From: Lutjanus erythropterus
Lineage: Eukaryota; Chordata; Actinopteri; Lutjaniformes; Lutjanidae
Length of the DNA stretch: 64,000 nucleotides
Direction: 5' to 3'
Assembly (NCBI GenBank): GCA_020091685.1
Contig: CM034598.1
Coordinates: 17,341,362 to 17,405,361, forward strand
Positions 23,164 to 62,480 of this stretch are shown piece after piece. Under the pieces are notes generated by a model. The model ran no database searches and had not been told where the DNA came from. It saw only the letters and a list, made by a program, of their open reading frames with translations. The first letter of the stretch is position 1. Each line of letters starts with the position of its first letter. The translations under genes and the position numbers were made by a program.

Positions 23164-25420
23164 TCACTCGAAGGCTTTGGAGTAGCAGCTCTCGCAGTTG
23201 ACTTTCCCACCATGTAGGAACATACTGTCGAGAAGGTCTCCCATTGGCTTACTACACACGGCACACTGAAAAAAGAAAGGGAAGAATGTTATTAGAAAAA
23301 TGTAATTAAGAGAAAATGCGGTGAAGAGCAGTGTTTTTGTCCTTGAAAGTCTCTCATACTAATTTATCGCTCCATACAAAACTGCAGCTTTGAAACACAA
23401 TTAAGTGGTTAAACCTTTGATTCATGGACTGGAAATATGCAATAGCAAGATATAATTTGTATTTGAAGACTTATTTAAAAAATGACTATTAAAAGGGAAA
23501 ATTTGGCACTATTCATGTTGGATGTCCAGTCAGTGTTGATGGTAACTGTAGTCAAGTGAACCACTGAATTCCTCGGTGTGGCTTTACTGACCAAGAAAAC
23601 TGACTTCAAATCTGTAGTTCTGTAGGAAGAACTACAGGCTATTTCTAGTCTCCTCCTCCAGGTAGCCAGGGAACGTGTTTTTGTCATCTAACACCATATT
23701 TTGGCAAACAAAGTAATAGCTACAGGTTAGGGTGGTGATACACTGCAACATGGCTGTGTGAGTCACAAGCTTGAGTGCAAAGCATCCTGGTACATGCAGG
23801 CGCTGCAGGCACAGCTCTGGAGCAGGAGAACTCAGTTTTCTTGGTCAATATAGCGTGGACTGGGGACTTTGTCATTTACAGACTGGACTGGACATCCACA
23901 TGAAAAGTGCAAAATGTTTCCATGAAGGAACAAAGGTTAGTGATTATAAATATTAAAGGAATAATTTGACATATTGGGAAATACATATATAAAGAGTTAG
24001 ATAAGAGGATTGATACCACTCTCGTGTAGATCTGTCTGTCTTAGCATAAAGACAGGAAACAGTGAAACAGCTAGCCTGGCTCTGTCCAAAGTTAAAAAAA
24101 AAAAATCTACTAGCATCAGCTCACTAATTAACATATTATATGTCTTTACTTAAAACATGTGGTTGTATAACGGGTTCTCTGCTGGGCTATTTGTTTGTCA
24201 GGAGCAGTTTCTGGAGTCACCACTGGTCAGGGTTGGGTGGTAACAAAATAAATGTAACAGAGTTTCGTAATCAGGATACAAAAAACAGTTACTAAAAATA
24301 AAAATTAGCAACACATTGAGTAAAAATGGGGATTATTAGCAGGATTATAATTTTAAAATAAAGAATGATATACTACTACGCACAGTATACACACATTACA
24401 ACACAAATCTTTCAAATGCTTTCTCTGGGTGGAAATTTCACCTTTGTTGTGTTTTAAATCAGAAAAGGGGGACTGACATCACAGTATATTTCTGCCTTTT
24501 GACTGAAAATGCTGTTAGCACTGACATATACTTTAAAGGAACACTTACAAGTAAGACCAAGCGCTAACGTTAACTACACAGAAATCCAGTTAGCTATCAT
24601 GTCAATACTTTCAGTAATAATACTGCTGCTGCGACCACTGAGAAATATTTGGGAAATGTAGGTGGTGATGCTGTTGACTGGGACGGTATATAGATAAAAT
24701 TACAAGCCTCAGACCTCAGAAGAAAGTACATTTAAATGTGCATAATTAATCCAAACGAGCATTCACATTTAAAGGGAAGAATATAGCAGGACAAACAATT
24801 AATCAACCAATCAACCAACATAAAACATTTTTGTATTGAGATAATCCAAAATTAACAAAAGTAATTGAGTTATAGTACTTTAATATTGTGATATTTGGAT
24901 TAGGTTACTTACTACATATTTAACAGGTAAATAGTACCTGTATCCCTCCCAACCCAGTGGTTGCCTGGTAACATAGTAGTGATGTAGGCGGAGTCTTGAA
25001 CTATGGACAGAGCCACACGAGCTCATTCCTCATTTCCAGTCTTAATGCTGAGATAAATTAAAACTGGCTCACGGCTGCAATGATATATTTATTATACAGA
25101 CATGAGAGTGGTACCAATCCTCTCATCTAACTTTCTGCAAAAAAGAATATAAACATATTTACCAAAATGTCAAACAGTTTCTTTCAGGGGAACAAAAGCT
25201 TATTTTCTCTGTCAGTCCCTTCAAGGACACGTGAATGCGTCCAATAATTTATAGTCCAATAAATGCCAAGTTGTGTCTTCAGCAGAACTGTATCTGTGCA
25301 GACAGATGGATTACCTTGAAGCAGGCAGGGTGGCAGTTGATATTGAGGTGCTCGATGGAGATCTTGGCATCGTTGCCCACCAGCTCTCCGCAGTACGTAC
25401 AGGTGGATGACAGCGAGCCG
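23164..25420 (-). other. znf185 LIM-domain exons
   Basis: Exons 25315-25420 and 23164-23265 (TGA) encode one LIM finger. The zinc ligands are CTYC, then HPAC after 19 residues, then C-A-V-C and a closing CESC. The intron falls exactly between the first zinc module (ending HPACFK) and the second (starting CAVCSKPMGDLLD). KPMGDLLD is nearly identical to the human ZNF185 LIM. All eight ligands are present, so the domain should bind two zinc ions. Confidence 0.93.
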
Positions 25421-28400
25421 CTGGGGAGACACAGCGAGTTCGAGTTAGTTGGTCACCGACTCAAGCGGCTCTCATGCAGCTGCAGCTCTGTCTAGTAAAA
25501 TAACCTGTGACCCTTTCTGTCCTGTGCGAGGGAACTTAATAAGTGTAAATAATCCTTTGATGTCCCCGCTTAGCCTCCTAATGAGCAGGCTTGGTGGAAT
25601 TTCTGCCCTACTGCTTACACATATCCAGTTTCGTCAGAACTGGAGATAACGAGGCAGGGGGAGAAAGGGCTCCGGCTTATAGCTTGTTTAAAACAGGTTT
25701 ACAGAATTGTGTTGTTACTTGGAGTGAGCGGGGGAGCGGCTGTAAGAATACCTGACAAATAATCTGACCCATTATGGAAACTGCGGAAAATGTACATGAA
25801 ATGTTTGAAGTGTCAATGACGGCCACCTGGTCACAATTCTCTCATATTACAGTTAAATGGCACACTAAAATATGTTTCTGAAAAAATGTTAGGGGAGAAA
25901 TAGGTGACGCAGTAACAGAAACTTATTTGATCAACACTGTCTAGTTTGACAGTTTGATCTTACTTTTGGGAGGCTCAGTTTCTGAGCAAAGCACAAAATG
26001 GTGGCCACTAGGTTACAATCTTTTACGTATAGCAGGTCAAAGTTATATTTTTCGGCATTTTAGGTGAAAAATAGGCAATGTAGTAACCATAATCTTGATG
26101 CGTATTTGTTCAACACTGCCTAGTTGGCAGTTTGATCTGTGTTTTGTGAGCAGTGTGTTTTCTGATGTTGCTTTATTTTTTTATTTTTCAAACTTCCTTG
26201 AGTAAATGAAGTGCACGTTTTTTTTGGGGATGCGGCTGATGTACTACGACCTCTACTGGCAGTGAATGTCACTTAAGTGTGAGCGCCAAGTCAAGTTGAA
26301 GTATACTGTAAGTTGGAGTGAAAGTGCTGTAAGGAGTTGAAATGTCACTCAAGTGTAAGTGATGTATTCAGCTAGAAGTGTCAGCTGAAGTAAAATGCCT
26401 GAAAGAAATTAGCGGCAGTTCAAGTAAACTGAAAGATATCAGTGAAAATGTCGGCTGAACTGTAAGCAGTGAAAGCAGCTAAAATATATTGTGCATGAAC
26501 AGTGAAATTTAGAAGAGCTGAAGAAGTATTCTTTTAGTTGATCTAACACTTGAAAGGGTTATAAGTGTTAGTCAAAGTGTGCACGCTGAATGTCAGCTGG
26601 CGTGTAATTAACGCTTCCCAAGTCTGAGCTCCAATAACTGTTCTGAAATTTTAGCCAATCTGCATCAATTTTGCTGGGTACGTACAAAGCAAAAAGGAGT
26701 GAGACTTAGGAAGGCTGAATTGGTGAAAGCAGTTGAATTGCCATGTAAAAAGCTTCAGTCAGGCTTACAGCTTGTTTGAAACAGGTTTCGAGCATTGTGT
26801 TATTACCTGGAGCGAGCGGAGGGGCTGCTGTAAAGGTACCTGTTGGAGCTCGATGTCAAATAATCTGACCCACTGTAGAAAAAAAGAGCAGTTAGTGATT
26901 CATCCTGAGAGCAGTGGTGCCAGCTTTATTCAGGTGTATGTTTTTTAATGAACATTGTAATTTGGCTGTGTAAACAATGTATTGGTCCTACCCATCGATT
27001 GTATCTCTTGCATTATGCAAGGACATCTGTGTTGTATCGACATACTCCTTCACAAACACAAACCCCCTTGAACAGAGATAGGGAAGAGTGAGTTCATATG
27101 CATAGTTAAAATATTAGCTGTCACTTCAGTTTAAACGTTTGCAGAAATCACTCACTTTTTGGCCTCAGGTTCAGGTGTTTGCGCACGCTGGTCTTCTTCT
27201 GTCACAGTCCTGGAATAGGTTTCATAACTGGAGACAGAGTGCAGCAGCGTTAGTCTCATCGTTCACTCGCCGACGTCGACAGTACTGTGATGGGTTATAC
27301 AGAAGGACTCTACATCTGTCAAATGTAACTCAGGAGATAATCATTTTCTGCCACCGCTTGTTAATGGCATGCTGTTTAACGGGCTGTGATTTGACAAAAG
27401 GACATCTCTAATACACATCATTAATCTGACATCTGGAGACTGATAATTAGAGGGAGGGAAATGAGGGCAAATTGAAAGACAATGGGAGCGCAGATCTTGT
27501 CATTTAACTTCAGCAGCAGAGTTGAGTTCGGAGACTTTCTGCGTCACACAGGAGTTGCAGGTAACTTTAGATCCAGACTACAGTATTATGTGGATACACC
27601 TGTGTTCCCACAGGGATTGGCCTAAAGCTCTCGCCGCCTAACTAAGACGGCGGGGTTACAAGCACGGAGACAAAAGCAGCAGATCTGGAGGGCGGAAGTG
27701 TAAAACAAGTCCAGACGATCTAAATTTTAAATGGAGTGTGTTTTACTTTAATTACGTCTTATTAAATGGAACATTTAGGCTGGGTTGCACTGACAAGAAT
27801 TAATTTTTAAATCTAATTAAATCATGGTTGAACATTATGTTGCACCAAACTTTTAAACTAGCTTTAAATTCAGAAAGATGCCTCTTTGTAAACCTCAGTT
27901 TAGTTGAGTCATACTATAAAGCTCGATTAAATTTAATTCTGTGAGATCCAGTATTCATTTTAAACTTACAGTTGAGAAGGTTTAACTTTTAGCTGCCTTT
28001 TTGAGACGGATTGAGAAAAATAATCAAATTCTTTGAAGTTCTCTTCTTTCTTTCTCTCCTTTGTTTTTCTAAAAGGAGGAGAAATTAGAGCTTCTCCACA
28101 GAGCCATCATGAGTAGAAGGCTAATTAACTTTTTAGCTAGCTAACAAACAATGCAACATGTTGTTAATGTTTTAGCCAGATAGGTAACAATGTAATATTT
28201 TGTTAACTTTTAGGCTAGCTAGCAAATAATGTGATGCTTTGAAGAATACAAAGCAGCCAACAGTTTTCCCCACTCTGTTATACTTACTAGGTTCCAACAG
28301 CACTTTTTATTTGTTTATTTTAATTCGGGTAAATTCTATTTAACTCTATTTAATCATCACTAAACTTAGATTTACTACACAGAGAACAGTTTGTAATTGT

Positions 28401-31400
28401 GCCGCATGTAATTGGTGAAAGCAGTTGAATTTTCTTATAAAGAGCAAGAGATGAAAGCAGCTGAAGCGTCAGGAGTAAAAGAGCGTGGGCTTATAGCGTG
28501 GTTAAAACAGGTTTAGGGAATTGTGTTATTACCTGGAGCGAGTGGAGGGGCTGCTGTAAGAGTACCTGGTGGTGCTTGATGTTGAATAATCTGACCCACT
28601 GTGGAAATAAAACAGCTGTTAGTAAGTCATCATGAGAACAGCGCTGGAAGGTTTACTCAGCAGTATTGTTATTTGATTATGTAAATAATGTATTGGTCCT
28701 ACCCATCAATTGTATATCTCCATATTCATTAAACTATATTTCATTTCAACTTACGTCAATAAACTTAGATTTACTAAATGGAAAACAGTTTGTAATTGTG
28801 GAACAGAGCTCTGCTTAATGAATTTACTCACTTTAAACCCCGTCAACCTAGTCTTATTCCACTTATAGAATAACTGGTAAATTTAATTTCTGTGCAGTGC
28901 CACTGTTTTTTTTAACGTTCATAAAAGACAAAAAGCTCTCCGAGTGTCTTCACAAAATCAGAAAATCAACAGACCAAACTGTAGAAAATAACACTCTGGA
29001 GAAAGTATTCTTGCATTATGCTGTCTGACGTTAACAAGATCATAAACTTACCGATCCATAGCCGGCTCGAGCTCACTGCGCGTCTCCCTGGAAAGTAAAG
29101 AAAGCTGTGTTAGACTTTTACTGTAGGCTGGAGCAGTCAATAACCTGGATGGTATCCAGTGAACAAGAATTCTGCAGTTTTTATAAGAGTATGACGCTGA
29201 TCTCTCTGACTCACGGCTCCAGAGGGGTCGTGGTTTATTGACCAGGTGTGGTCTAGTTTTCTATTGTGCCGCAGCATTGCCTCTTTCTGATCCCGCCTCC
29301 CATTGTAAACTTCACCTACATGCCTCTCACGCTCTCAATTCCTGCTAATCCACCCAGTTTTTGATCACAAGATGTGAGTTTTAAGAATTTCAAACCTGAT
29401 AGTGGTGATGGTTGTGACTGTCTGTGTATCCTCGGGGCTACAAAACAGAGGACATTCCTGCATTATAATAAGTCTGGCAGTACAGGTGAAGAAGTGACAG
29501 CATTAAAGTAAAAATAACAAGTCGAGAAGAGGGTTGATTATTCTCAGACTGAGCCGTGAGGAAGTTTCAACTTGTATTTAGCTTGCTTTCAATTAAATGC
29601 TTGACAGCCACTGAATTTTAAGGCACTATAATCACATCCTGCTAGAATTGTGAAAAATAAAGTGGTTTAATATGCATTTAATGAGCCCAGCCACAGTGGA
29701 GATACCTTTCCTCCTCCTCCTCCTCTTCCTCCTCCTCCTCCTCCTCCTCCTCTCCTGTGGCGGTAGTGATAGTATATACAGTGGGTGATGTCCACCTGTC
29801 CCATGGGGAGTCATTCTCTTTGGACCTTGAGCACAAACAAAGACATGACACTGTAGCTTGAGAGGATGACAAATTCACATTCTGTGTATTGTAAAAAAAA
29901 GAAAAAAGTCTGAAAGGGGATCTGCAATCATGGGGAAAGGTTGTAACACGTACATATCTGACCTATTTTTATCAGCACCAGTGCACAATGTTTTCTGGCT
30001 CAATGAGTAGATGCTGCAAAAGCCTAGTTCCTCCGCTGTAGTGAAAGGGAAGGAGGTTATGGGAATAAAAGGAGCAGGAGCTTTAAATAAAAAGATGACT
30101 TACTTTCTCTCAAACATGATCAGCGTCTCTTGATCTGCAGCTTGGCCTTCTGGTTCAGCATCTTGGCTGAAAGGGGACACATACATTGAAAGGCTTTTAG
30201 TGCGTAATGGACATGGATGGATGCGTGTAGATGAATGAAACACAGTGGAGCGGCTGCATTGTGTGGCAGCGTAAAAGTATATCGATGCGTGTCATCACCT
30301 CTGCTCTGTGTTAGTCTGCTGAGGTGTGCTGGGTTCCCATGAGCGTGCCCATGACCGCCGAGTGCTGAAATTGGAGAGCCTAAGTGCGGAGTGCAGAAGT
30401 TATGACAGATCAGGCAGATCAGATAAAGGTAATGTGTACAGTGTGAAAGAGAGTCATTTCTGCAGGTCTTCCTTTCCCCTCCACCTCTCACTCCTACATT
30501 CATAACACAATTATGCACTAGACTCAGTTTAATACCTTGTGGTGTCAGTGTTGATAGGGATGATGTCGTCTGCAAGGGATTCCAGCGCATTACTGCTCAT
30601 ACTGTCAAACAAGCACACACACAAAAAGGGGAAAAAAACATTTAAAAAAAACCCATTAGAATTAATTAATTAACAGCAGCCTTTGGGTTTAAGGCACTGA
30701 ATATGAACCATAATGTGTCCAGTTGCCCTCAGCTCTTTCTCCCCTCATTTCCTGCCATCTCTCTCATGTCAAGTCTCTATAAAGTGCACAAATACTTAAT
30801 TAATAACTACAGGAGCACACAGCGGACATGGCACTGAATATACTACAGAACAGTCTGTGTGTGAGTGCTGTTCAGGTGAGAAAAAGGTGTCCCTCTGGTG
30901 CTCTTCGGTTTGGGTTCCTGCCCCATTTTGCTCTGTGTTCCATTAGCAGTTGAGCAAGCTCAGTAAGCACTGGAACATTTTGTTTTTCTTGTACTCAGAT
31001 ATGCAATGTGCCGGGCTCAGCTATGTTGAGAAGAAAACCAAATTTTGGAGATGGTAACAAACTGATGCTGGAGGACGTGTAAAGTTAGATCATGTTAGCA
31101 AAAATAACTGATGTAGCCTAAATTAGTAGGGCTAATTAGCTAGTGTTTTGCTAACACTGAAAAATGGCTGAAACATGTAGGCGTGTTTTTAACTGCTGCT
31201 ATGACTAAATAGCCACAAGTTATTAAAGGCTTTAAATTGTTACCCTAGAGTGCCTCAGATTTCTGTGAAGAAAATTTGACTTAGTTGAAATTTTAGTTGG
31301 ATAAGTTGATTGATCATTAATGATATTTCGGTTATTTATCAAGCAAAAATACCAAACATCTTTTGGTTACAGCTTCTCAAATGCAAGACTTAGACTAAAC

Positions 31401-34400
31401 AAGAAATTTAATTGAAACTTTACTGTTTTATTAAAAAATAATCAAACAAATATATATAGAAAGGGAGCAATATACTGAATATCATATTAAAAACTGTATA
31501 TAAATGTATGTAACTATATGTAACTATATATAATTTGTTATATATATACTGTATATATCATTTATTATAAGTGACTGCTACTCACTGCTGCATTGTTTTC
31601 GTTTTGTAATTGTACAAACACCATTTAAGCTTTAATTTCCAAACACAGTTCACGCCAACTATTGCACATGCTTAGGTCATGTTTACTTTAATTTTATTTT
31701 ATTCAAGAAGGAACGCAGAAGAACTTAAAGTTGAGAGAAAAAATACATTTCATACAAAAAATTTGCTGTACACATCAGATTTGCTATTAAATAATAAACA
31801 TTTAATAAGAAGTTGTGATTTTTCTTTTGTTTTTTAATGTCATAATATTATAATATCATCATATCTATATATATGTTCATTCATTTATATATATATTTTA
31901 TCATAGTATTATTGTACCCTTTTTAGCATCATTTCATCCCTAATTGATATTGAAGATTATTGATAGGTGATGTTACCACAGAGAAGGTGTTGGATGCAAC
32001 TTACGTGGTTTCTGCACTTGGATCTTTGTTCTCTGTGGAAGTACTCGACACCCTGAAGAAATAAAACAGTTAAATAAAACCAACATTAGTGTATCAAGGA
32101 GATGGAGCCACAGTGCTCAGCATGTCTGCTATGATAGCCTCTGATTATGAATAATAACGATCACAGAGTGAATCAGTTGTAGTAGCTAAGATCGTATGTA
32201 GTAGCATGATAGTATTGGTGCTACAAACAGAGGTTATGATATAAGAAAAAAGGGGAATTTGCATTATCATTCCTTTACCTGTTGATGGAAATATCTGAGA
32301 GGGGCTGGAGCAGGTCAGAGGAGCTGCAATAGAGAAAAGTGGCTCATAATCAGAAACTGCTGCATTATGCATGCCGAGATACTATCTGGCTGGCTGGAAA
32401 ACAGTCACAGCTCCAAACCAATATGATTACCTGTTAGGGGATGTGGTCCCTATCGGATATGGATCAAACGGATCAGCCGAGCTGAAAAACAATTTCACAC
32501 TGATTTCACTCTCAATTGTCAGCATGGCCCATCTTGTGTCGGAGGAATTCTGATCACATTGACTCATAATGGAAAGATTTAATGCAGTTTGAATGGTAAA
32601 CAGAAACACAGAGGAACCCGGGGCCAAACTCAATCAAAATCAGAAACTGAATGTCTTTGACAAATAGAAGGACCACTCTGCTGCAGAATGGCAAAATCAG
32701 TGTATTTCAGGTTTTCTTCACCTAAAATGAACCTAGATTCCAGTCCATACCAATTACTACAGCTAAGGAGATTGTAGATATTATCAGATCAGATATTTTG
32801 CCAACAAGAAAATCTTTCCCTTCCAGTTAATTTATCAACTGCATTAAACTTAATTTGCCTATTTAGCTGAAATGACAATCTATCTTACAATTCAATAAAA
32901 AAAAAAAAAACACAGTCGCCAAAGAAAATCTATTTGATACAAGTCAGGAAGAAATCAAGTTCATGGACAAGGTAAAATTAAAGTTTTATTCACGTTACGT
33001 TTATTTACATCTACAAATACTTCCTGATGTATTTGACGTATCCCATGTTTTCCCTGAAGGTATAGTAACTACCCGCTAGCAGGACATGTACCGATACCTT
33101 GAATATATTATGTATTTATCAGTGTTTGAAGATTGTTGGAAACATTTGGGGTAATGTCAACACACCCCCCAAGATATATAAAAAAAGATCAAACATTTTT
33201 AGACATTTTAAAGTTAAAATATGTAACATTTCAGCATTGAAATATCTAACAATCACTTGTGTTAAACTCAAGGACTGCATCCAGTCCATCACGTAAATTT
33301 ATGTGTAAAACAACAAAGGATATAATTTGTGCGACACAATTCTTTGATGCTTTATAGAAGGTGTCCTTAAACTACATGTTCCAGAATGCATCCAGATTTC
33401 ATTATCTGTGCACAGAAGAACAGCGGCAGCCTAGTAAAATATCCAAGAAAAGAAAAGCTGATGCAGAGGAACGGCAATTTATTGAGAGATGAGATGGTGT
33501 GTTTCCTACTAGCCCTGGCAAGCTAATTGCTAGTTACTACAATTTGCGGGAAAAAGTAGGATAGCATCCATATACCTGAAAGTGAGGAAAGAAGTTGGTA
33601 AATGTGACTAAATGTAACTGAATAAAACTTTAATATTACTTCATGTATGAACATGATTTCTGTGTGAGTCGTCAGATCGATTTTCATTGGCTATTGTGGT
33701 TATTAAAAAGTGAAGAAAACTCCCACGCGACTTCACGACATTATCTAACTTTGCCTTTTGTTAATGTTTTAATATGAGAGACCCCTAGTGGCAGAACTTA
33801 CATATGGTGTGTTCAATGCAGAAATGTTACATATTATTGCTTTAGGCAAATTAGTTCCTTTTTTTTTCACTCAGTGTCAGTGAAGTTAAGTATTTTCTAA
33901 ACACATTTACATACATATTGCAGACATCTTAAAGCGCTTAGATGTAAATAAACTACCTTGATTCAGTGACTGTGGTTGTCACATGTGAGCTCCAGGGATC
34001 TGCATTGCTCTCCTCACTGCATGGCGGCAAGAAAAAAAAAAAGCAAAGGAGGGGTGGTACGGATGAATGGCATGATGGGAAGAGAAAAGAGGGCAAGTAA
34101 AGGTTAGTGTGGTGCTTCTCATACACTATTTACAATGCCAGCCCTTTAAAAAAAGCTTGAAACCCACTGAACAATTTAACGAGCATGAAAACCATCTGAA
34201 TATAGTGCAGAACAGACTTTTTCTCTGTGTGTGTGTGTGCTCTCGTACCTTTTGTCAGTAATGATCACAGTTTTGGTGGTTATAGTGACTGTCTCAGTGG
34301 GGCTGGCGGGCAGAGAGACACACGGCACAGTTGCAGGCAGAGTTAGTATAAATCATTACAAGGCATATCTGAATAGAATGCATTTCTGAGCAGGAACAGC

Positions 34401-37400
34401 TCTGCATAGATAGATAATTGTTTAAGAGCAGCCTGTCATCTCCCTCTACCTTTGTGTTTCTTTGGCTGTCTCATCTGTCTGTTTCTCCTCCTCTCGCTGC
34501 ATGCTGAGGCTGGCGGAGACAAAACAAAGCCGCAATACTAATCAGCACAGAACATTCTCTTCTATTTCCAGTCGCGCTGCAGATAAGACGTGGCTTTCTG
34601 TTTCAAAGTATTACTCAGTCGCTTCAGGAATCTGCGACTTTGTTTCTATCTAACATGGAGCAGGGGGGGTTAAAATAGAACGCTGGAAGTAGAGGAGCCC
34701 TGATTTATGGATCAAACTTGAGGCGGATGGGATTTATTATGAGTCTTACACCTCGGGGAGCTGGGATGCTTGGCCCCTTCATCTGTGGTGATAAGAATTA
34801 ATTGTACACAAGGAGGGTAGGAGGGATGGAGGGATGGGGAGCAGAGGCCACCACACGTCTGCCTGCTTCTCACCTGCGTGCCTCTGTGCTGATTGCAATG
34901 TCATCATTAGCCAGGAGATCCAGGGTGCCGCTGGTCTTTGCTGGGCTCGACTCACTACAGACATCAAACACAGAAGTCAAATACAGAGCAGAGTTTGTGT
35001 ATCCAAACTCTGGCGAGGTGAGTCAGGGTAAAACCTCTACTTGCTACTGACAAGGGAGCTATTGATTTTCTCCTGATGAAAGGATAATTCTTCACATAAC
35101 TCTGCATTTGGGTGGGAAAGAGCTCTTCCTATACCTGTCTAGCCCGCTAAGCAGATCCTGGCTCCAGCGTCCTGGGCTGGGGGGAACGGGCTCTGCTGCT
35201 GACGCCTCTGGACTGCGGAGGTGGAAAGGAGGAGAGGAAGAGGAAGTGGAGAAGGTGATGAACAAAGGGGGATTTAGGATTCAGAGGAGATTTCAGAGCA
35301 AGAACAGGCCATTTGAGGTAGAGGAGTAAAGAGATTAGAAGTCCAACAGTGCCACCTTGTGGGAGAATTTCTAATTTGAGGATCAGAATTATTAGAGTTT
35401 TGTACTTTATTTTATCTACTTTATTTTTATTTCGTTTAATTTTTTTGTTTTCAGTTCAGTACCACTTTACAATAAGACTACCCTTACATATTACTTATAA
35501 GTGGTTTATAATTGGGTTATTAATTACACTGGACACACTTTGTAAATCATCAATAAACAGTTTAAGAAAGTAGTACTCGTAAATTCTACTGCAGAAAGAG
35601 AGTAGTTCCTAATTTTCAGAATTTAAAACAGACTAGAAATCATTTATGAGGGTAAATCTTATTGTAAAGTGGCACCTTCAATTCAGTTTAGTTTAATTTA
35701 GTTTCCTGGGTGAGTTTGATCATTTCACTTTAGTATTTATTGTTTAAAATGGTTAGTTTTAGTTTTGTTTTCATTGAACTCACTATTAGTTTAAGTTTCT
35801 TTTTATTATAATAAAATTTGTCAGGGGAAAAAGGTTCATAAGGTATTATGATACAAACGTAACACTTTGGCTGCGTTCACACTGCACCCCCACCCACCTG
35901 CCATATCGGAATTCACTCAACTTTTATGCCTGAAGTGAAAAGTAGTTAAAAGTTAAAAGCAGCCCTTCAACATCCTGCAATTTGGGATGAAATTTGTTTC
36001 TGTGAAGCCATTCACATCACAATCCCACCACTCCTGGCTCTGATTCCACATCCGCTCACACCATCATACAGAAGTAGCAGCCATTGCTCCACAAAGCTGC
36101 AATTAAAAATTTGGCTCTCTTTCTCCTCAACCTTGACTCTGTTGTCATATGATCATGAATTTGTTGGCTTCTACTGCACATCAACTCATAAATGAAACCA
36201 TAAATACGGACTTTAGCACGACAGCGTGCTGCATGTTAAGTCATTGTTATTGCTGTTTTGTGCATGCAGGTCATTTCAGAACTGTGACCTACTGACAAAG
36301 AATCTGATTTTGAGAAACAATGGGAGCATTCAGACCTGAGCAGTAAATCAGAATTGAGCACTTGGGCTTGCAGTGTAAATGTAGCCATAGTGAAGACAAC
36401 AGACACACAGTCATGTTGAGACGTCCCAGTCTCAATAAACATATGCACTGATGCCTCCCTATGCTTGTTGTGTTGACCAAACTGACAAACTCATGATTTC
36501 CGGTGTAATTTCTGTTTAAGTTTAGCTAGTTTTGTACAGTACTGTTTCAGTTTGTTTTTGATTTTTTTTCTAAAGTCTAGGTTTTGTTTTTTTATTTCAG
36601 TTAAACCTACTACAGGGAGTTTTTAAGTGATTATGAAACAGTCTTGATTTAATACTGATGCCTCTATATGACCTACAGAAGAAAACGAGACCATCTGCGA
36701 GAAGACTGTTTTTTTTAATATATAGTTATTCTTTACACCTGCCAACAGGTCAGATTCTTCGTGAAATCTGATGAAATGAGCCTGTGTTTATATTTTCCCA
36801 GAGAACGTTACAGTGATTAGTAAATTAGAATAAATAAATTAGCCAAAAGAAGCAGGAGCAGATTTTTATTTAGATAATTTTTCTAATGACATTGTATTAT
36901 ATGGTTGTTACAGTGGAAACACTGCCGCTTTTGTCCACAGGTGCCTCCAAATGTTTTTTGTAGTAGTTTTAACTAAAATAAATTTTGACACTTTTAGCTT
37001 TAGTTGTGGTTGACTGTTATAACCTTGTTGAGGACTGCTTAATTACATAAATGCTAAGAATGTATTTTTAACAAACCCATCACTGAGAGCCAGGAGATCG
37101 TCTGTCATTGGTACACAGTTGCTGAGCTCCGGTGCTGGCTCCTGTTCAACACTGCAGACAGTAAGAAGAAAAAAAAAATAATACATCGGTGCACCTGCTT
37201 TGGCACATATGCACTCATCTCTATATTACATTTTTAAGTACCACATTTAATCAAGTCTAATCTGGGACACCCTCTTGTGTGAGGAAGTTTTAGGCACCTG
37301 AAATTGAGATGTGGGTTATTTTGTGATTACTTTGAAGTGAACACTGTGGCAGTTAGCCATTATCTGTTCTCCTGCCAACACTGCTATGACATGAATGAGG

Positions 37401-40400
37401 AAGTTGTTGGTTTCATACCCATTCTCTGTGGTGCGACTGTCCGCTGAGCCTCCCTCTTCCTCTGCCAGCACTGGCTCATCATCCTTAAAGCTGGGGGAGG
37501 AAATAAACTCTTATTATCAGATGGCGTGGTGCTAAGGCTGGAGGCACTAACATGATTTTTTTTTCTTTTTTCATATTGGTTTCTGCTGCTTTCGGCTTTG
37601 TCTTTTTCCCAGTACCTGGTTGAACTCGTGCCGAAAGAAATGAGGGTGTCGGACAAGGCGGTGAGCGTGTCAACACTGGAGCTGTGAAAATAGATGGAGA
37701 ACAAACACCAGCACAGGTTTCAATCATACATATGAAAAGAAGGAGAGCAAACATACTGCAGAAATACACAAAGAAAACCACCTGAAAGCACATTTAAAGC
37801 TTTGATTTTCATTTATATATACTGATGTTAACACTATGCAGTGGTGGAAGAATTCAGCTCCTTTCAAAGTCAAAGTCCTGTTATCAGAGTTTTACATCAG
37901 TGTTGTGAGCAAAATGTACTTTAATTGCCAAAAGTGCTCAACACCTCGGTGAATATTATATTTCTATATATTGAATTAGTGAATCTTTATCACTGATGCA
38001 TCAGTGTGTAAGTAGCATTTTATTAAGCTATATAATATAAACAAAGTAGAGCAAATTTCATCTGCTTATTAAATGTTTGGTAGTTTGAGCTATAACAATG
38101 CACAAGAGTATATAAATCAAGATGAAATAAAAAAAAATGCCTTTTTAACCATTTTAGATCACATCCCGACAGGAATGAGACCTCAGATCCAGAAATGAGT
38201 TAGCATATTAGCACTTCTGATGCTCACGTCATAAAGTCAGTAGGTTTTTTTTAATGTGTTTTTAGTTATTTGCCACAAAAAAGGTCTGTGTTTAACACAA
38301 GCATAAGTACGTACCCGAAATACCATATAATCTGGACTTTAAGTTGATATTTGCATGTAATATCTGAATATTGGTTAGTAGAAATCTTACCTTGGTTTTG
38401 GAGATGGTTGAGGGTCTTGCTCTAGTTCTGGTTCTGGTTCTGGTTCAGTCTTCACTGTGATCTCTGGGACGGGTGACACAAGGGCAGGAGACAGTGGGGT
38501 AAGAGGCACTGGGAGAGGGGATTCTGGGACAGTTGAAGCTGGGGCAGGAGATGCTGGGGTCGGTATCACCGGTGCGAGTTCAACCAGCGGTTTGTCATCC
38601 TGCGCAGAAACGTCTGAATCCTCGGCTTCTGGCTTCGTACAGACCGCTTGAACAAACTCAGGGAGGAGCACAGGGAGGGGAGTGTCCACCTTGGTGCAGC
38701 CTGGTGTCATTTGGTCAAATGGGTCTTTTTGTATAACAGACACTGGAGGGGGGTCTTCTTTCACTGGCTCCGGGGCGGGCTTCTCTTTCTCCACCACCTT
38801 TGGTGCCACCGGCTCATTAACGGGGACATCAGCAGCTGCCTTAACGCTGCTGTCGGCTCTGTGAAACACAAAGATAATGAATGAAATGGAAGGAACAGGA
38901 GTCACTTGTTGCTCTGGAAATAGAAAACATGGCATAGGGCTCACATTTTGCGTGGTCTGGGCTGAGGGACGGAGGCAACAGATGTGACGGGGGCGATAGG
39001 GGAGGGGGGTGGAGAGCTGGCAGGTGCTTGAGTCGAAGCACTCTCATCATCATCAGTAATCTCCACCCTGCATATTTGTAGCCAAGCAGGCAGAAAGAAT
39101 AAAGTTTGATCACCAACTTGGAGGCTTTTCTTTTCTTTTAGAGATATTAGATGGAGCATTTACCTTTTAGCCACAAATGATACACTGGTGTTGTCCGGTG
39201 AGGGTTCCTGTGGTTCTTGAGACCTGAGATTTTATGAAACACAGCTCTCATGAATACCTGCTCACCATTTATAGTGATTTTCTCAATGTGTCGTAAGTTT
39301 TTCCTCACTTCTTTTATGATTTAAGAATTCCAGGTTGTGTGTTCAGATTAGTGCTGGGAGAGACTTAAGACATACATACTCAAATTTCTTAGCAGCAGAG
39401 AGCACATAAGACCTCTGCCTGGCTGCAGATTTCCTCAGAATACTGCTGGCTGCCTCCGTCCTGCGAAAAAAAAGGAATCATTATGATGCTAATGTAATCT
39501 CTTTTCTGACCATGTGAGTTCATGGTGTTTCTTTGCATGAGGACAGTCTTCTTACCGTTTCTCCTGCTCCTCCTTGCTAAGCAGACCCTCCTGGTTCTCT
39601 GAAGTGGACTTCACAGTGTGGGGTGCTCTGAAGAAACACAGGAGCAAATACATACGCCGCATGAAAATACATTCTTGCTCAGCTGCCAGCAGCAGTTAGC
39701 TGAATCTGATTTGCATGCGCTCACATTTTCTTGTAGCTCTCTGAAGGTTTTTTGGCGAACTGTGTTGTTCCACTAGAAGAAGAAAAAAAAACAGATTACA
39801 CATTACTGTGGGAACCAGAGAAGAAAGTGAATCTATTATCACTCTTTTAACGCACTTATTCAAGAGAAGCTGTTACCTGTAACCATTAGGCGTTGAGGAT
39901 GAAGCAGGCTTGTCTAGTTTAGTCCAAACACCTCTGAAAGGAAAACAACAATATGAAAACATACCTTTTCCCTTCAGTGTAGCTCAATAGCTGCTATTTT
40001 TAGTACTCAGACATCCCTTCTTTCAAATATTTAGAAAATATTGCAAAAGCTCACCACTGTAGAAAATAAAGTAAAAGAGAAATAGGAAAAATAATTAAAA
40101 AAAAATCATATCAGCAGATCACTGGAAAGATTCCACAAGTGGAAATATCACAATTAAAATACTGGTTGGAAAGTAAGCATAGAATGTTTTCTTACACCCA
40201 ACAAATAAGGCAAATATATTAAAAATCTAAAACTTTTGCAATGGACTTGAAAGAAACAACTGAGCCTTCCTAAGACCCGTCCACTTTGGAATTTTCTCCT
40301 TTCCTGTTTCCTGTACTTAGATGCTTTGTGCAAGGCTTGTCTATGTTGAGAAGAAACACATAGACAAGCCTAGCAAAAGAAGGGAAACATCACTGTGCAT

Positions 40401-43400
40401 TTTCAGTGGGCCGTATAACCAGGAAGTAAACAGAGAAGCTAGAAAACTTTTCTGGCTTATATGCTAGGTAAGCAACTCTCATTGGACTGAATGGGCGCCA
40501 TCTTTGCGTACATTATCCAGCTCATTATAATATATCTATGGCTAATAAACATCAATCATTACATCTGATAGGTAGTTACATCTGATAACTAATGTTACCA
40601 AAACTCTAGCTAACTAGCTAGCTAATTATCAATCGTTAGCTAGCTAATTAGCAAGGAAAGAGGAAGTTCACTGAGGTTCTGCCAGTTACCCAGGTTGCTC
40701 AGCTGTTACTGGCGCACAGAACAAACAGGGGCAGGACTTAGTAAGAGTTAGTGTCTGGAAAGATGAACTTTCAATCATTGCAATAGAGTATTTTTTAATG
40801 ATATCCCTGTTTCTGCTTTTGATTTAGTTTCAAATAGGATATCTCAGTGTACAGTGTGATCGTACCTGATTAGGTATCCAGGCGTTGCAGCTCTAAATTC
40901 AAAACAGAGACTTGTTATCAGCACCATCATGTTTTCATAGCATTCGGTAGATAACTCTGTGGCATTAGAAACCAGTGTTTACCTTTCACTGTCAGACTTG
41001 GTGGGTGGTGGAGTGGGTTTTGTTGGGGAGGACACCGGACTGGTCTCAATGGGGGCTCCATTCACACGGCCAGCCCTTACTTCTGCTAACCTGTAGGTAT
41101 GCACAGCTACTTAGTGTTTTTTTTCCTATTCAAGTGAGTGAGTGAGTGCTGCATGATACAGGCAGGGGTCTGTCTACACATGTGGTTTACCATGGTTTCT
41201 CCTCCTTGGTTTCAGCCTCAGGTTCATTGCGGCGCAGCAGCCAGCTGTTGTCTCCTTTCAGCTTTGTCCGCACTTGGGTGGTACGGAAAACAGTTGCTTT
41301 GTCCACCTCTGAGACACAAACACGGGCATGTCACATGCTGGTACACCATCTGAGATATTATACACACTGTAGGCTGCATCATGATGACATCTTAATCAGC
41401 ATCTTGATGGCATGCATCATATTCAGTCCCCTTTGGCTCAACACGCACCACATGATCAACCACTTGTGTTTTACATTCAATCAGGGCCATGACAGAAGAT
41501 CAGACTTTACAGAGTCATCAGCCTGGCACAGAGACACGCCTTCTGATTTCATTCGAGGAAACACGTCATCTCACATTTAGTTCACATCAGTCACCGTGCT
41601 CACCTTTAGACATGCTTGTTCTAGAGGTTTCTCTCTCTTCTTTCTTCCGCTTCCTTTACAGACCACCTGAAAAATATATTGGAACCACATTGAGACGCAG
41701 ATCATGTTGAAAGAAAAATTGTGCAATTTGCTGCAATTTATTATAACCACACTTGCCAACCCTCCAAATTCTCTGTTTTCTCAGGAGAAGTGTTTTTCAT
41801 TGCCCTCTCACAATTCTCCCATATTTCTCCTTCTTTATGACAATTTTCACTACATTTTTCCGTCTTTGTTTAATCTCATAACCTGTTTCTGACTCTGTAC
41901 AGTGTGTTTAAGCTCTGTGACCCTAAAGGTTTCCCCATGGACAGCAATACAGCTGCACCAAATGTTTCTTGACATTCACAGGACATAGAAGAGAACAGAA
42001 GAGACTGCTCGTGCCTCGTCAGTGAATCAGCAGTGCAGACGGAAATGCCGAGTACTGAGAGAAAGAAATACTCAAGCAAATTTCAGATGTCCTGGAAAGA
42101 ATAATTCGAGTTTCTTATGTAAAGTGGCAGCTTTAGATCACTATTACCGACCCGGACAAAAGAGACAAAGAAAGAGACATTATTAAAAATTTCAAACATT
42201 TTTTGCTCAGTATCTACAGTAATAGCACTCAAAAAACATAAAATACTATTTGTTTCAGTAACATGGTGTCATCGCCTTTTCATTATTGTAGAATCTTTGA
42301 GGTAACTGTTGGCCCCTGTTGGTCCTCCCCTAGAAGTGCCCCAACAAAGAGGCATGCATTTTGTAAAATCTCTCTAAGGGGCAGGGGCAAAAAATGAATG
42401 AATAAAATGAATGAATGAATGAAAACTGATGATGAATATTAGCTTATTCCAGAGATTTCACAACAGATGGGCAAATTACTTTGTATTCTTTCTTGAGAAT
42501 GAAAACTAAAATGAAAAGTACATGAAAATTCAGTTTCAGTGTACTTATTATTTTTTTTGTTATTTTCATTCTTTAAAAGTCCCCAGAATGCAGGAAACAA
42601 AGTGTCTGAAACTTTTTTCCTGGGGTGGGATCCACAGAGCCCCCACTTTGACTTCTAAATCCTGCTTATTTCTGAGGTCTGAAGGTTGACAAGTATGCTC
42701 ATTACACATTTTCAAAATGGTTGTTCCCACGCTATGTTCCCTCCCAACAAGGAACATGTGCTCTGGAAAGAATTCCTCAGTCTCATCCATTAGACATGCA
42801 GATGATCCTGTCCTACCACTTTCCTAAAAAAAAAAAAAAAAAAAAATACTGCGGTTGCTTAAATATGAATGGACACATACGCAAATACCTATATCTGATT
42901 CCTTTGTGTTTCGATATATACACTCGCATTAAGGCTGTTACAACATCAGATTTTCACTACACAATTATTGTGGCCAAAAATGTTTTTACAATAACGGTAT
43001 TTTCATGATATGAACATAAAATGTGAAAATAATAATAATGCTATCGGTCAGATTCACCTTTAACTTTGTTAACTGTGTGTTTTGTCTGTTTTATCGGCAA
43101 ATGAATTACACTCAAAATACGAGTGTAGTGGGGTGGACAGAGAGTCTGTAACCATAACTGTACGTAAACATACAAAAGGTGCAGTTATGCTTAAAGAGAC
43201 GGTTCACCCCAAAATCAAAAATACATGTTTCTCCTTGGGCATGAAGTGCTATTTATTCTACATATTTTAAATTACATTCCAGTTAACACATAGAAGCTTT
43301 TTCATTAGACGTTTTGTAGTTTCTTTGAATTTGGGTTTTGATAGTAGAAAGAAAGTAGTTCTGTTAGATTCGACTGCAGAAAGAAAGAAATTCCTACGTG

Positions 43401-60697: not shown

Positions 60698-62480
60698 TCA
60701 GACTTCATCACAGACTTTGCTCCAGTGTGCTGCCTGTCGTATCCTTTGCTGCAGCTCCCGTGAGCGGTAGCCATAGACCAGAGGGATGAGAGACACCCCC
60801 AGGTTGTAGGTAATGGTGGTCGCTATATAGACAGCATCGCTGTGCATGCTGCTGGGGAGCAGGTAGCTGTCCATGACCACAGGAGCAGAGAAGAGAATGG
60901 TCTGAGCTACCTGGAGAGTCAGGGTGACCCAGGCTCTGTTGGTGCAGAGCAGTCCTGCACGCATGTCCCAGCAGAGCAGGCAGAAACATCCTAGGATGGT
61001 CAGAAAGCAGAGAGGCACCACCACAGCTGATCCCACAGTGCCATAAAGTATCAGAGCCGACGTCCCTGACAGGCAGGGTGACAGGATGAGAGGTCGACAG
61101 CGGGAAAGGGGAAAATCGACCTGGATGGTGCTGAGGCCGATACACAAAGCCACACTGCTGAGCACAGCTGATAAAGTCCATGTGGCTGCCACAGTTGCTC
61201 TCCTCCTTTGAGCACACATCAGGAATTCATAGCGCAGAGGCCACTTGACAGCTACAAAGCGGTCCACTGCCAGAGCCGTGCTCAGGAAGAGGTCCACCTG
61301 TGCAAAAGAAAGTGGACGTCAAGTAAATGCGACCCTCAGTTTTGGCTGTTAGTTGCCATGTCAAGATTTTTAGAAATGCAGTTTTCATAATATGTGAGTC
61401 AAAGCAGGCAGACTGTCTGCAGAGCGTAGAACGCAGACTTTTTTATAAAAGCCTCAGGTAAAATGAGTCTCATCTCCTCTATAATTTACTGTGCTGCTGT
61501 TTGGTCTTATGCTTTCTCTCTCCTGAATAATTCACATGCATCATACTGCACAGACATTATACAACTCCACGCTGGAGATCTGATCTAATAATATGGAGTA
61601 AAGATGAAAAACTCATAATGTCAAATCATTATTATGACCACACAATAACTTAATTTCATTTCGAAGTAAGAGATGGGTGTCAGCAATCGACTGTCCTCAT
61701 GCAAAAACTGAACCTTAAAAGCCCTGTTTTTAGTACTTTTTTAAAATCATCCTTCTGTGAGAGCTCAGCATGGAAACACTGAGCAGATTCAAAAGTAGGA
61801 AATTTTTAAACTAAGGCTGTAATCTTTGTAGATACTTTTTCATATGTATAAGTCAAACTATACTAAACCAAAATATTAGCTTTGTTTTAACTTAAAGCTC
61901 CTATGAGGTCAAAATCAATGTTGTGTTTTTAGTTATTTTGTTGTGAAGAGTTTTTATCACATAGCTTTGTTTTCCACTATACGTCACCTATGTGTCAGTA
62001 TCTGTCCAACCATGACAAATAAGTCATTTTGTAGGTATTATCTGGTAATTTAAATATTTCAGAGTTTGTCTTTTCCTGGAAAATAAACCTGTTGATGACT
62101 CATTCTGCACTCCATGCAAAGGAGCTGCTGAAATAATAATAAGGTCAAGGGGTATTATTATATCATCATCATCATCATCATCATCATCTGTTATAAAGAA
62201 AAGGTGCATTGGAATGGTTTCGTAAATAAATCTGTCCAGTCAAAAAGTATGGACCTACAGTACCTGGAGGTTGTCACACGAGAGGAGGTGTGTGAGGAGC
62301 AGGAAGCGAGTGTGTCTGAGGAGGGACGGGGGGGCGTACGATGACCAGGAGTAAAGGAACACTGAGTACAGTGTTCAGGGAGCAGCTCACACACATGCTG
62401 ACCATGTTAACCAGGCAGAAGATGGTGGAGTTGATCTGTGTTTGGGCCTCCAGTGTTGTCACATTGCAGTCGATATCCAT
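60698..62480 (-). pseudogene. Rhodopsin-class GPCR (GPR148 / odorant receptor 131-2-like), apparently disrupted
   Basis: Two coding blocks. The first (62264-62480) starts MDIDCNVTTLEAQTQIN (N-glycosylation sites NVT and NST) with membrane helix 1 ending VPLLLVIV and the start of helix 2. The second (60698-61297) runs from the end of helix 3 through helix 7 with VDRFVAVKWPLRY (DRF variant of DRY), a PLVYGY near the end of helix 7, and the tail WSKVCDEV. Two defects are seen: a run of seven C residues (+ strand G at 62328-62334) shifts the frame, and deleting one base would restore RPPSLLRHTRFLLLTHLLSC; and the last part of helix 2, outer loop 1 and most of helix 3, with its conserved cysteine, are missing between the blocks. 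Splice sites at 62264 (donor) and 61298 (acceptor) are good. The family call is by memory. Confidence 0.6.
61298..62263 (-). other. Intron-like gap of the GPCR
   Basis: About 0.97 kb of AT-rich sequence with no minus-strand frame resembling the missing transmembrane segment. It includes a (tca)n microsatellite at about 62161-62188. Nothing else seen. Confidence 0.55.

What the first reader, a model, noticed from the sequence alone, without database searches (positions are those of the whole stretch)
26807..41090. Thirty consecutive znf185 exons share length mod 3 = 0 and the same codon phase
From the exon at 40983-41090 to the one at 26807-26872, every exon I could define is divisible by three and splits codons after base 2. 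Any subset could be skipped or duplicated in frame, giving a very large number of possible proteins from one gene. The rest of the gene (start exons and LIM exons) does not follow the rule. The modular layout recalls sciellin, but the run here seems long.
Basis: seen in the sequence. Interest (0 to 1): 0.7.

Follow-up and report, generated by a model that had tools for sequence, protein, structure and literature searches.

The report
Run of same-phase exons in znf185
A predicted fish gene for a LIM-domain protein is built from about thirty mostly small exons in a row that all break the reading frame at the same codon position, so nearly any of them could be skipped or copied without wrecking the protein, a layout already known from other long modular genes.

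Summary
The minus strand carries a gene that reads as fish znf185. Between asymmetric start exons and asymmetric LIM exons I define 31 consecutive exons (41090 to 26807), all divisible by three and all entered and left after codon base 2. Site choice does not explain it: a dynamic programme with fixed ends, blind to or biased against phase 2, returned 19 of 19, 20 of 20 and 16 of 16 such exons between the two asymmetric ones, though missing 12 to 15 of my 33. Elsewhere in the window 7 of 67 candidates have that class. Equal phase and length mod 3 are one fact. Exons 28 and 32 are a tandem duplication with a decayed third copy. Use of many combinations is not shown. Nebulin has 177 of 182 exons divisible by three (PMC9222585, passages), so the kind is known. 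No other fish could be compared.

The parts
41604..41666 (-). start-codon exon of znf185 (ATG at 41613), ends after codon base 1; outer boundary predicted
41191..41308 (-). exon 1, 118 nt, class 1-2, ends in TG
40983..41090 (-). exon 2, 108 nt, 2-2, first of the run; skipping it alone makes TGA
40866..40892 (-). exon 3, 27 nt, 2-2
39877..39933 (-). exon 4, 57 nt, 2-2
39725..39772 (-). exon 5, 48 nt, 2-2
39556..39627 (-). exon 6, 72 nt, 2-2
39380..39460 (-). exon 7, 81 nt, 2-2; weak donor, a better-scoring one 4 nt on would break the frame
39164..39223 (-). exon 8, 60 nt, 2-2
38945..39067 (-). exon 9, 123 nt, 2-2
38391..38858 (-). exon 10, 468 nt, 2-2, Pro/Glu-rich
37616..37681 (-). exon 11, 66 nt, 2-2, leucine-type module
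37419..37490 (-). exon 12, 72 nt, 2-2
37077..37151 (-). exon 13, 75 nt, 2-2, leucine-type module
35135..35212 (-). exon 14, 78 nt, 2-2
34874..34954 (-). exon 15, 81 nt, 2-2, leucine-type module
34450..34509 (-). exon 16, 60 nt, 2-2
34249..34302 (-). exon 17, 54 nt, 2-2, Thr/Val-type module
33957..34016 (-). exon 18, 60 nt, 2-2, DPW motif
32431..32481 (-). exon 19, 51 nt, 2-2, DPF motif; upstream acceptor at 32532 also keeps frame
32279..32323 (-). exon 20, 45 nt, 2-2, leucine-type module
32005..32052 (-). exon 21, 48 nt, 2-2
30536..30601 (-). exon 22, 66 nt, 2-2, leucine-type module
30299..30379 (-). exon 23, 81 nt, 2-2; inner acceptor at 30364 scores higher and also keeps frame
30104..30166 (-). 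exon 24, 63 nt, 2-2
29706..29825 (-). exon 25, 120 nt, 2-2, run of 15 Glu
29396..29437 (-). exon 26, 42 nt, 2-2, Thr/Val-type module
29052..29087 (-). exon 27, 36 nt, 2-2
28533..28598 (-). exon 28, 66 nt, 2-2, duplicate of exon 32
27970..28068 (-). exon 29, 99 nt, 2-2, doubtful member (lowest codon score)
27156..27227 (-). exon 30, 72 nt, 2-2
26992..27066 (-). exon 31, 75 nt, 2-2
26807..26872 (-). exon 32, 66 nt, 2-2, last of the run, duplicate of exon 28
25719..25771 (-). decayed third copy of exon 28/32: 53 nt left after a 13-nt deletion, acceptor AG lost at its place; from an AG 9 nt upstream it would be 62 nt, still not divisible by three
25315..25420 (-). first LIM exon, 106 nt, class 2-0
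23164..23265 (-). last coding exon, rest of the LIM domain, stop codon

Best explanation
This is the znf185 gene of a fish. An N-terminal part and a C-terminal LIM domain are joined by a middle of 840 residues, disordered by composition and encoded by 31 mostly small exons of class 2-2 (predicted). I infer that the linker grew at least in part by tandem duplication of exons with intron sequence. Only symmetric exons that match the phase-2 introns on both sides can be added, lost or skipped without a frameshift, so the class spreads and persists while copies that lose symmetry decay. In use, most exons are probably included, with some skipped in frame to set linker length and short motifs; that step is not shown.
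For: 31 of 33 internal exons are 2-2 and phase-blind tests agree. The phase-2 frame scores best or is the only open one in 31 of 31 (the exons were picked to be open in it). LIM: Pfam E 9e-7, the only family found up to E 0.1. Middle: 76.8% disorder-promoting residues, LIM part 50.7%. Exons 28 and 32 with flanks: 78% identity over 248 columns, E 2e-55; exon 88%, flanking introns 82 and 81% with gap columns left out. The third copy has lost its acceptor and its divisibility by three. Exon peptides look related more often than chance: 13 of 435 pairs at a shuffle fraction of 0.01 or less, 4.35 expected (exon 10 left out, 300 shuffles a pair, 28/32 included). In human ZNF185 a construct without exons 11 and 12 is made, is not cut by thrombin and protects cells from it (PMC9834212, passages).
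Against: Only one exon pair is a clear duplicate; the rest of the shared phase could be an old ancestral layout. For that pair dN is about equal to dS (0.138, 0.142 over 63 nt), so selection on it as coding sequence is not shown. The dynamic programme missed 12 to 15 of 33 exons. Exons 8 and 31 score no better than an unsupported 2-2 candidate (8.8 and 8.9 against 8.9), and an unsupported 1-1 candidate at 34782-34750 scores 12.9, above some ten of my exons. One study finds that, outside collagens, symmetric exons are only modestly linked to disorder (PMC4838654, passages). No transcript or orthologue was compared.
Confidence: 0.75

Rival explanations
1. Combinatorial bank: the exons are heavily and variably spliced, giving many linker proteins by tissue, and selection for that keeps all exons in one phase. 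(Not exclusive of the best explanation.)
For: 523 of 528 forward joins are stop-free. Alternative acceptors of exons 19 and 23 also keep frame. Tumour-linked splicing changes are reported for SCEL, LMO7 and LIMCH1, the SCEL one checked by RT-PCR (PMC4446417, passages).
Against: No transcript evidence here. 26 of 33 acceptors and 27 of 33 donors lie at or above the 90th percentile of all AG and GT sites of the region, which by inference speaks for regular inclusion of many exons. Skipping the first exon of the run alone makes a stop; the best-scoring exon 7 donor breaks the frame.
Confidence: 0.15
2. Frozen history: the ancestral gene already had phase-2 introns throughout this linker, and the phase now has no role; AG|gt junctions give Ser and Arg codons that a disordered linker tolerates.
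For: 21 of 32 native junction codons are Ser or Arg. Of 435 exon-peptide pairs only 13 stand out from shuffles.
Against: A tandem duplication still visible in the introns, with a decayed copy, shows turnover.
Confidence: 0.25
3. Artefact: the reader, and I after it, chose splice sites to fit one phase.
For: All exons are predictions. In 11 of 31 neighbourhoods splice score alone prefers another candidate, 8 of them not divisible by three. Exon 29 has a negative codon score.
Against: Phase-blind tests give the same class, also with the phase-2 prior lowered to 0.05.
Confidence: 0.03

Closest known systems
ZNF185 (mammalian), LMO7 class of LIM proteins
   Same: One C-terminal LIM domain; no CH or PDZ family found (class described in PMC3305314, passages); nsdhl-like neighbour (human order recalled)
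   Different: This model has 35 predicted coding exons; exon phases of mammalian ZNF185 were not seen
Sciellin (SCEL)
   Same: LIM protein with a modular middle: 16 inexact repeats of 20 residues (PMC5041940, passages)
   Different: Exons here are 27 to 468 nt without a regular repeat array; sciellin exon phases not seen
Nebulin and titin
   Same: Most exons divisible by three: NEB 177 of 182, TTN 311 of 363 (PMC9222585, passages); 93% of alternatively spliced titin I-band exons symmetric (PMC12580133, passages)
   Different: Giant muscle proteins; the passages give length symmetry, not intron phase
Teleost Piccolo (pclob) zinc-finger exons
   Same: Teleost exon amplification: 15 zebrafish exons in tandem, all starting and ending in frame 0 (PMC3484663, passages)
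   Different: Frame 0 not 2, exons of 702 to 1350 bp, conserved zinc-finger content in every copy

Membership tests
ZNF185 | single C-terminal LIM domain | tested here: met
   Pfam PF00412, residues 890-950 of 951, E 9e-7; LIM chains in the PDB by sequence
ZNF185 | no CH or PDZ domain (unlike LMO7) | tested here: met
   LIM was the only Pfam family up to E 0.1 in the predicted protein; rule from PMC3305314, passages
ZNF185 | conserved neighbours (NSDHL, CETN2) | tested here: inconclusive
   nsdhl-like and centrin-like exon candidates at 48-54 kb and 56-58 kb; EF-hand found in the latter, the one nsdhl-like piece scanned had no Pfam hit; human order recalled
ZNF185 | N-terminal actin-targeting domain | not testable with these tools
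   no vertebrate ZNF185 sequence was compared; likeness of the N-terminus is recalled only
Sciellin | tandem repeats of about 20 residues | tested here: not met
   no exon-scale tandem repeat in this middle; 13 of 435 exon-peptide pairs above shuffles, one clear duplicate
Genes with symmetric exon arrays (nebulin type) | most exons of length divisible by three | tested here: met
   31 of 33 internal predicted exons
Genes with symmetric exon arrays (nebulin type) | exons shown to be skipped or varied in frame | not testable with these tools
   no transcripts

The most novel reading that the evidence does not exclude
The 31 exons form a frame-neutral module bank in which fish epithelia choose linker length and short motifs (DPF/DPW, DLLxxL, Thr/Val runs) by exon choice, while exons keep being born by tandem duplication and dying when they lose symmetry.
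Probability: 0.12. Interest if true: 0.6.

Novelty: new member of a known kind. Interest (0 to 1): 0.35.

Why it matters
Long runs of one exon class are natural test cases for how exon duplication and reading-frame constraint shape disordered linkers. A duplication still visible in its introns, with a dead copy in the same gene, would let exon birth and death be dated across teleosts. As it stands it is a clean example of a known layout.

Tried and rejected
Rejected: that length mod 3 and phase are two independent regularities (once one junction is known, each follows from the other); that the phase is an effect of choosing sites; that the middle is a regular repeat array; that the decayed copy at 25771-25719 is a 32nd member. 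A 2-2 candidate at 27538-27431 (score 8.9) was left out for want of other support, while exon 29 (9.2) was kept but marked doubtful, so the count is 30 or 31 and the line between them is my choice. Three short motifs were looked for after seeing the protein: DP[FW] and D[LI]L..L exceed shuffles, L[ILVMF].[ILVMF][DE] does not (1 found, reached in 0.26 of shuffles).

Led nowhere: own-genome search (no answer, six tries); the 1997 ZNF185 gene-structure paper is not held. Of the paper searches, one search listed 40 of 208 papers that hold znf185; I read passages of two papers on ZNF185 itself. One search (teleost terms) listed 15 of 74,537, one of which holds znf185 once; one search listed 15 of 46; one search found none. 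So absence of a paper on this gene's phases is not shown. All ten searches.

The value 0.21 to the power 31 is not used as evidence: introns made by duplication are not independent, and 0.21 is recalled.

Full report
What is there. The minus strand from 41666 to 23164 reads as one gene. A start-codon exon (ATG at 41613) ends after codon base 1; exon 1 (41308-41191) is class 1-2; then come 31 exons, 41090-40983 to 26872-26807, all class 2-2; then a LIM exon (25420-25315, class 2-0) and a last exon with the stop (23265-23164). The product is 951 residues with one Pfam family up to E 0.1, LIM, at 890-950. All boundaries are predictions from sequence.

Which gene. By exon candidates the neighbours look like plp1, rab9, a fucosyltransferase, nsdhl, a centrin and a rhodopsin-type receptor (names are my reading). 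Of seven neighbour pieces scanned, six matched Pfam (PLP, Ras, both fucosyltransferase parts, EF-hand, 7tm_1) and the nsdhl-like piece did not. That human ZNF185 lies by NSDHL and CETN2 is recalled. [quoted passage not shown]

Is the regularity real. Four tests did not use phase. By splice score alone my exon ranked first in 20 of 31 neighbourhoods, and the top candidate was divisible by three in 23 of 31, against 0.36 of candidates on average (P about 1e-5 at 0.35); in 8 of 31 the top candidate was not divisible by three. A dynamic programme through the gene, with start donor and last acceptor fixed, gave 19 of 21, 20 of 22 and 16 of 18 exons of class 2-2 under vertebrate-like, uniform and anti-phase-2 priors, the other two each time being exon 1 and the LIM exon; it missed 13, 12 and 15 of my 33, and in two runs took a shorter form of exon 23. 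Without chaining, 17 of the top 20 sense candidates are 2-2 against 1 of the top 20 antisense (P 4e-7). One scan of the whole window gave 22 of 32 on the gene's strand in the gene region, 0 of 11 on the other strand there, and 7 of 67 outside. Six nsdhl-like candidates that I picked for protein likeness have classes 2-0, 0-0, 0-0, 0-2, 2-0 and 0-1. Weak members remain: exon 29 has codon score -2.7 and exon 4 -0.3; exons 8 and 31 score no better than an unsupported 2-2 candidate; an unsupported 1-1 candidate scores 12.9, above some ten of my exons.

What the rule allows. Of 528 forward joins between the ends of exons 1 to 32 and the starts of later exons up to the first LIM exon, 523 are stop-free at the junction. 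The five that are not start from exon 1, which ends in TG: joined to exons 3, 4, 6, 10 or 29 it reads TGA. The run is free inside but guarded at its entrance. Exon 7 has a weak donor with a better-scoring frame-breaking one 4 nt on. This says what the frame permits, not what splicing does.

How it arose. The block 28719-28488 matches 27008-26762 at 78% over 248 columns, and a third copy matches at 25780-25671. Exons 28 and 32 are 88% identical, their flanking introns 82 and 81% with gaps left out. The third copy has a 13-nt deletion and no AG at the old acceptor, leaving 53 nt; from an AG 9 nt upstream it would be 62 nt; neither is divisible by three. So an exon was duplicated with intron sequence in tandem, and the copy that lost symmetry is the one that decayed. 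dN and dS for the pair are about equal (0.138, 0.142), too little sequence to show selection. Among 435 pairs of exon peptides (exon 10 left out), 13 reach a shuffle fraction of 0.01 or less against 4.35 expected, with a leucine-type group (exons 11, 13, 15, 20, 22) and a Thr/Val-type pair (17, 26); some of the 13 rest on five or six residues.

What it does, most likely. The 840-residue middle is disordered by composition (76.8% disorder-promoting residues; LIM part 50.7%). ZNF185 is reported to target actin by its N-terminal part and to bind PKA by its C-terminal part; a human construct without exons 11 and 12 is made, is not cut by thrombin and protects cells (PMC9834212, passages). I infer that the exons set length and motifs of a linker between the two ends. 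Splicing changes are reported for relatives (SCEL, LMO7, LIMCH1; PMC4446417, passages) but nothing of the kind was tested here.

Known or new. Genes in which nearly every exon is divisible by three are known: nebulin 177 of 182, titin 311 of 363 (PMC9222585, passages), and 93% of alternatively spliced titin I-band exons (PMC12580133, passages). Teleost Piccolo has 15 tandem exons all in frame 0 (PMC3484663, passages). Outside collagens symmetric exons are only modestly linked to disorder (PMC4838654, passages), so the layout is not a general rule of disordered regions. A run of 31 in phase 2 is a good example, not a new kind. Whether it is in print for znf185 I cannot say: my ten searches were capped listings and the 1997 gene-structure paper is not held.

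Noticed in passing
window 25671-25780, minus strand: Decayed third copy of the exon 28/32 block: acceptor lost at its place, 13-nt deletion.
   Followed up: yes
window 39376-39380, minus strand: Exon 7 has a weak donor and a better-scoring donor 4 nt downstream that would break the frame.
   Followed up: partly
window 29706-29825, minus strand: Exon 25 encodes 15 Glu in a row; a trinucleotide tandem repeat lies at 29709-29756 and may vary in length between individuals.
   Followed up: no
predicted protein residues 280, 559, 576 (exons 10, 18, 19): Three DP[FW] motifs, shuffle mean 0.18, reached in 0.001 of 2000 shuffles; looked for after seeing the protein. Such motifs bind adaptor ears in other proteins (recalled).
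   Followed up: partly
window 60797-61297, minus strand: Rhodopsin-type receptor piece (Pfam 7tm_1, E 1.7e-10) beyond the centrin-like gene.
   Followed up: partly
window 30985-31036 and 40307-40356, minus strand: Related intron stretches (79% over 52 columns), perhaps remains of a dispersed repeat.
   Followed up: no
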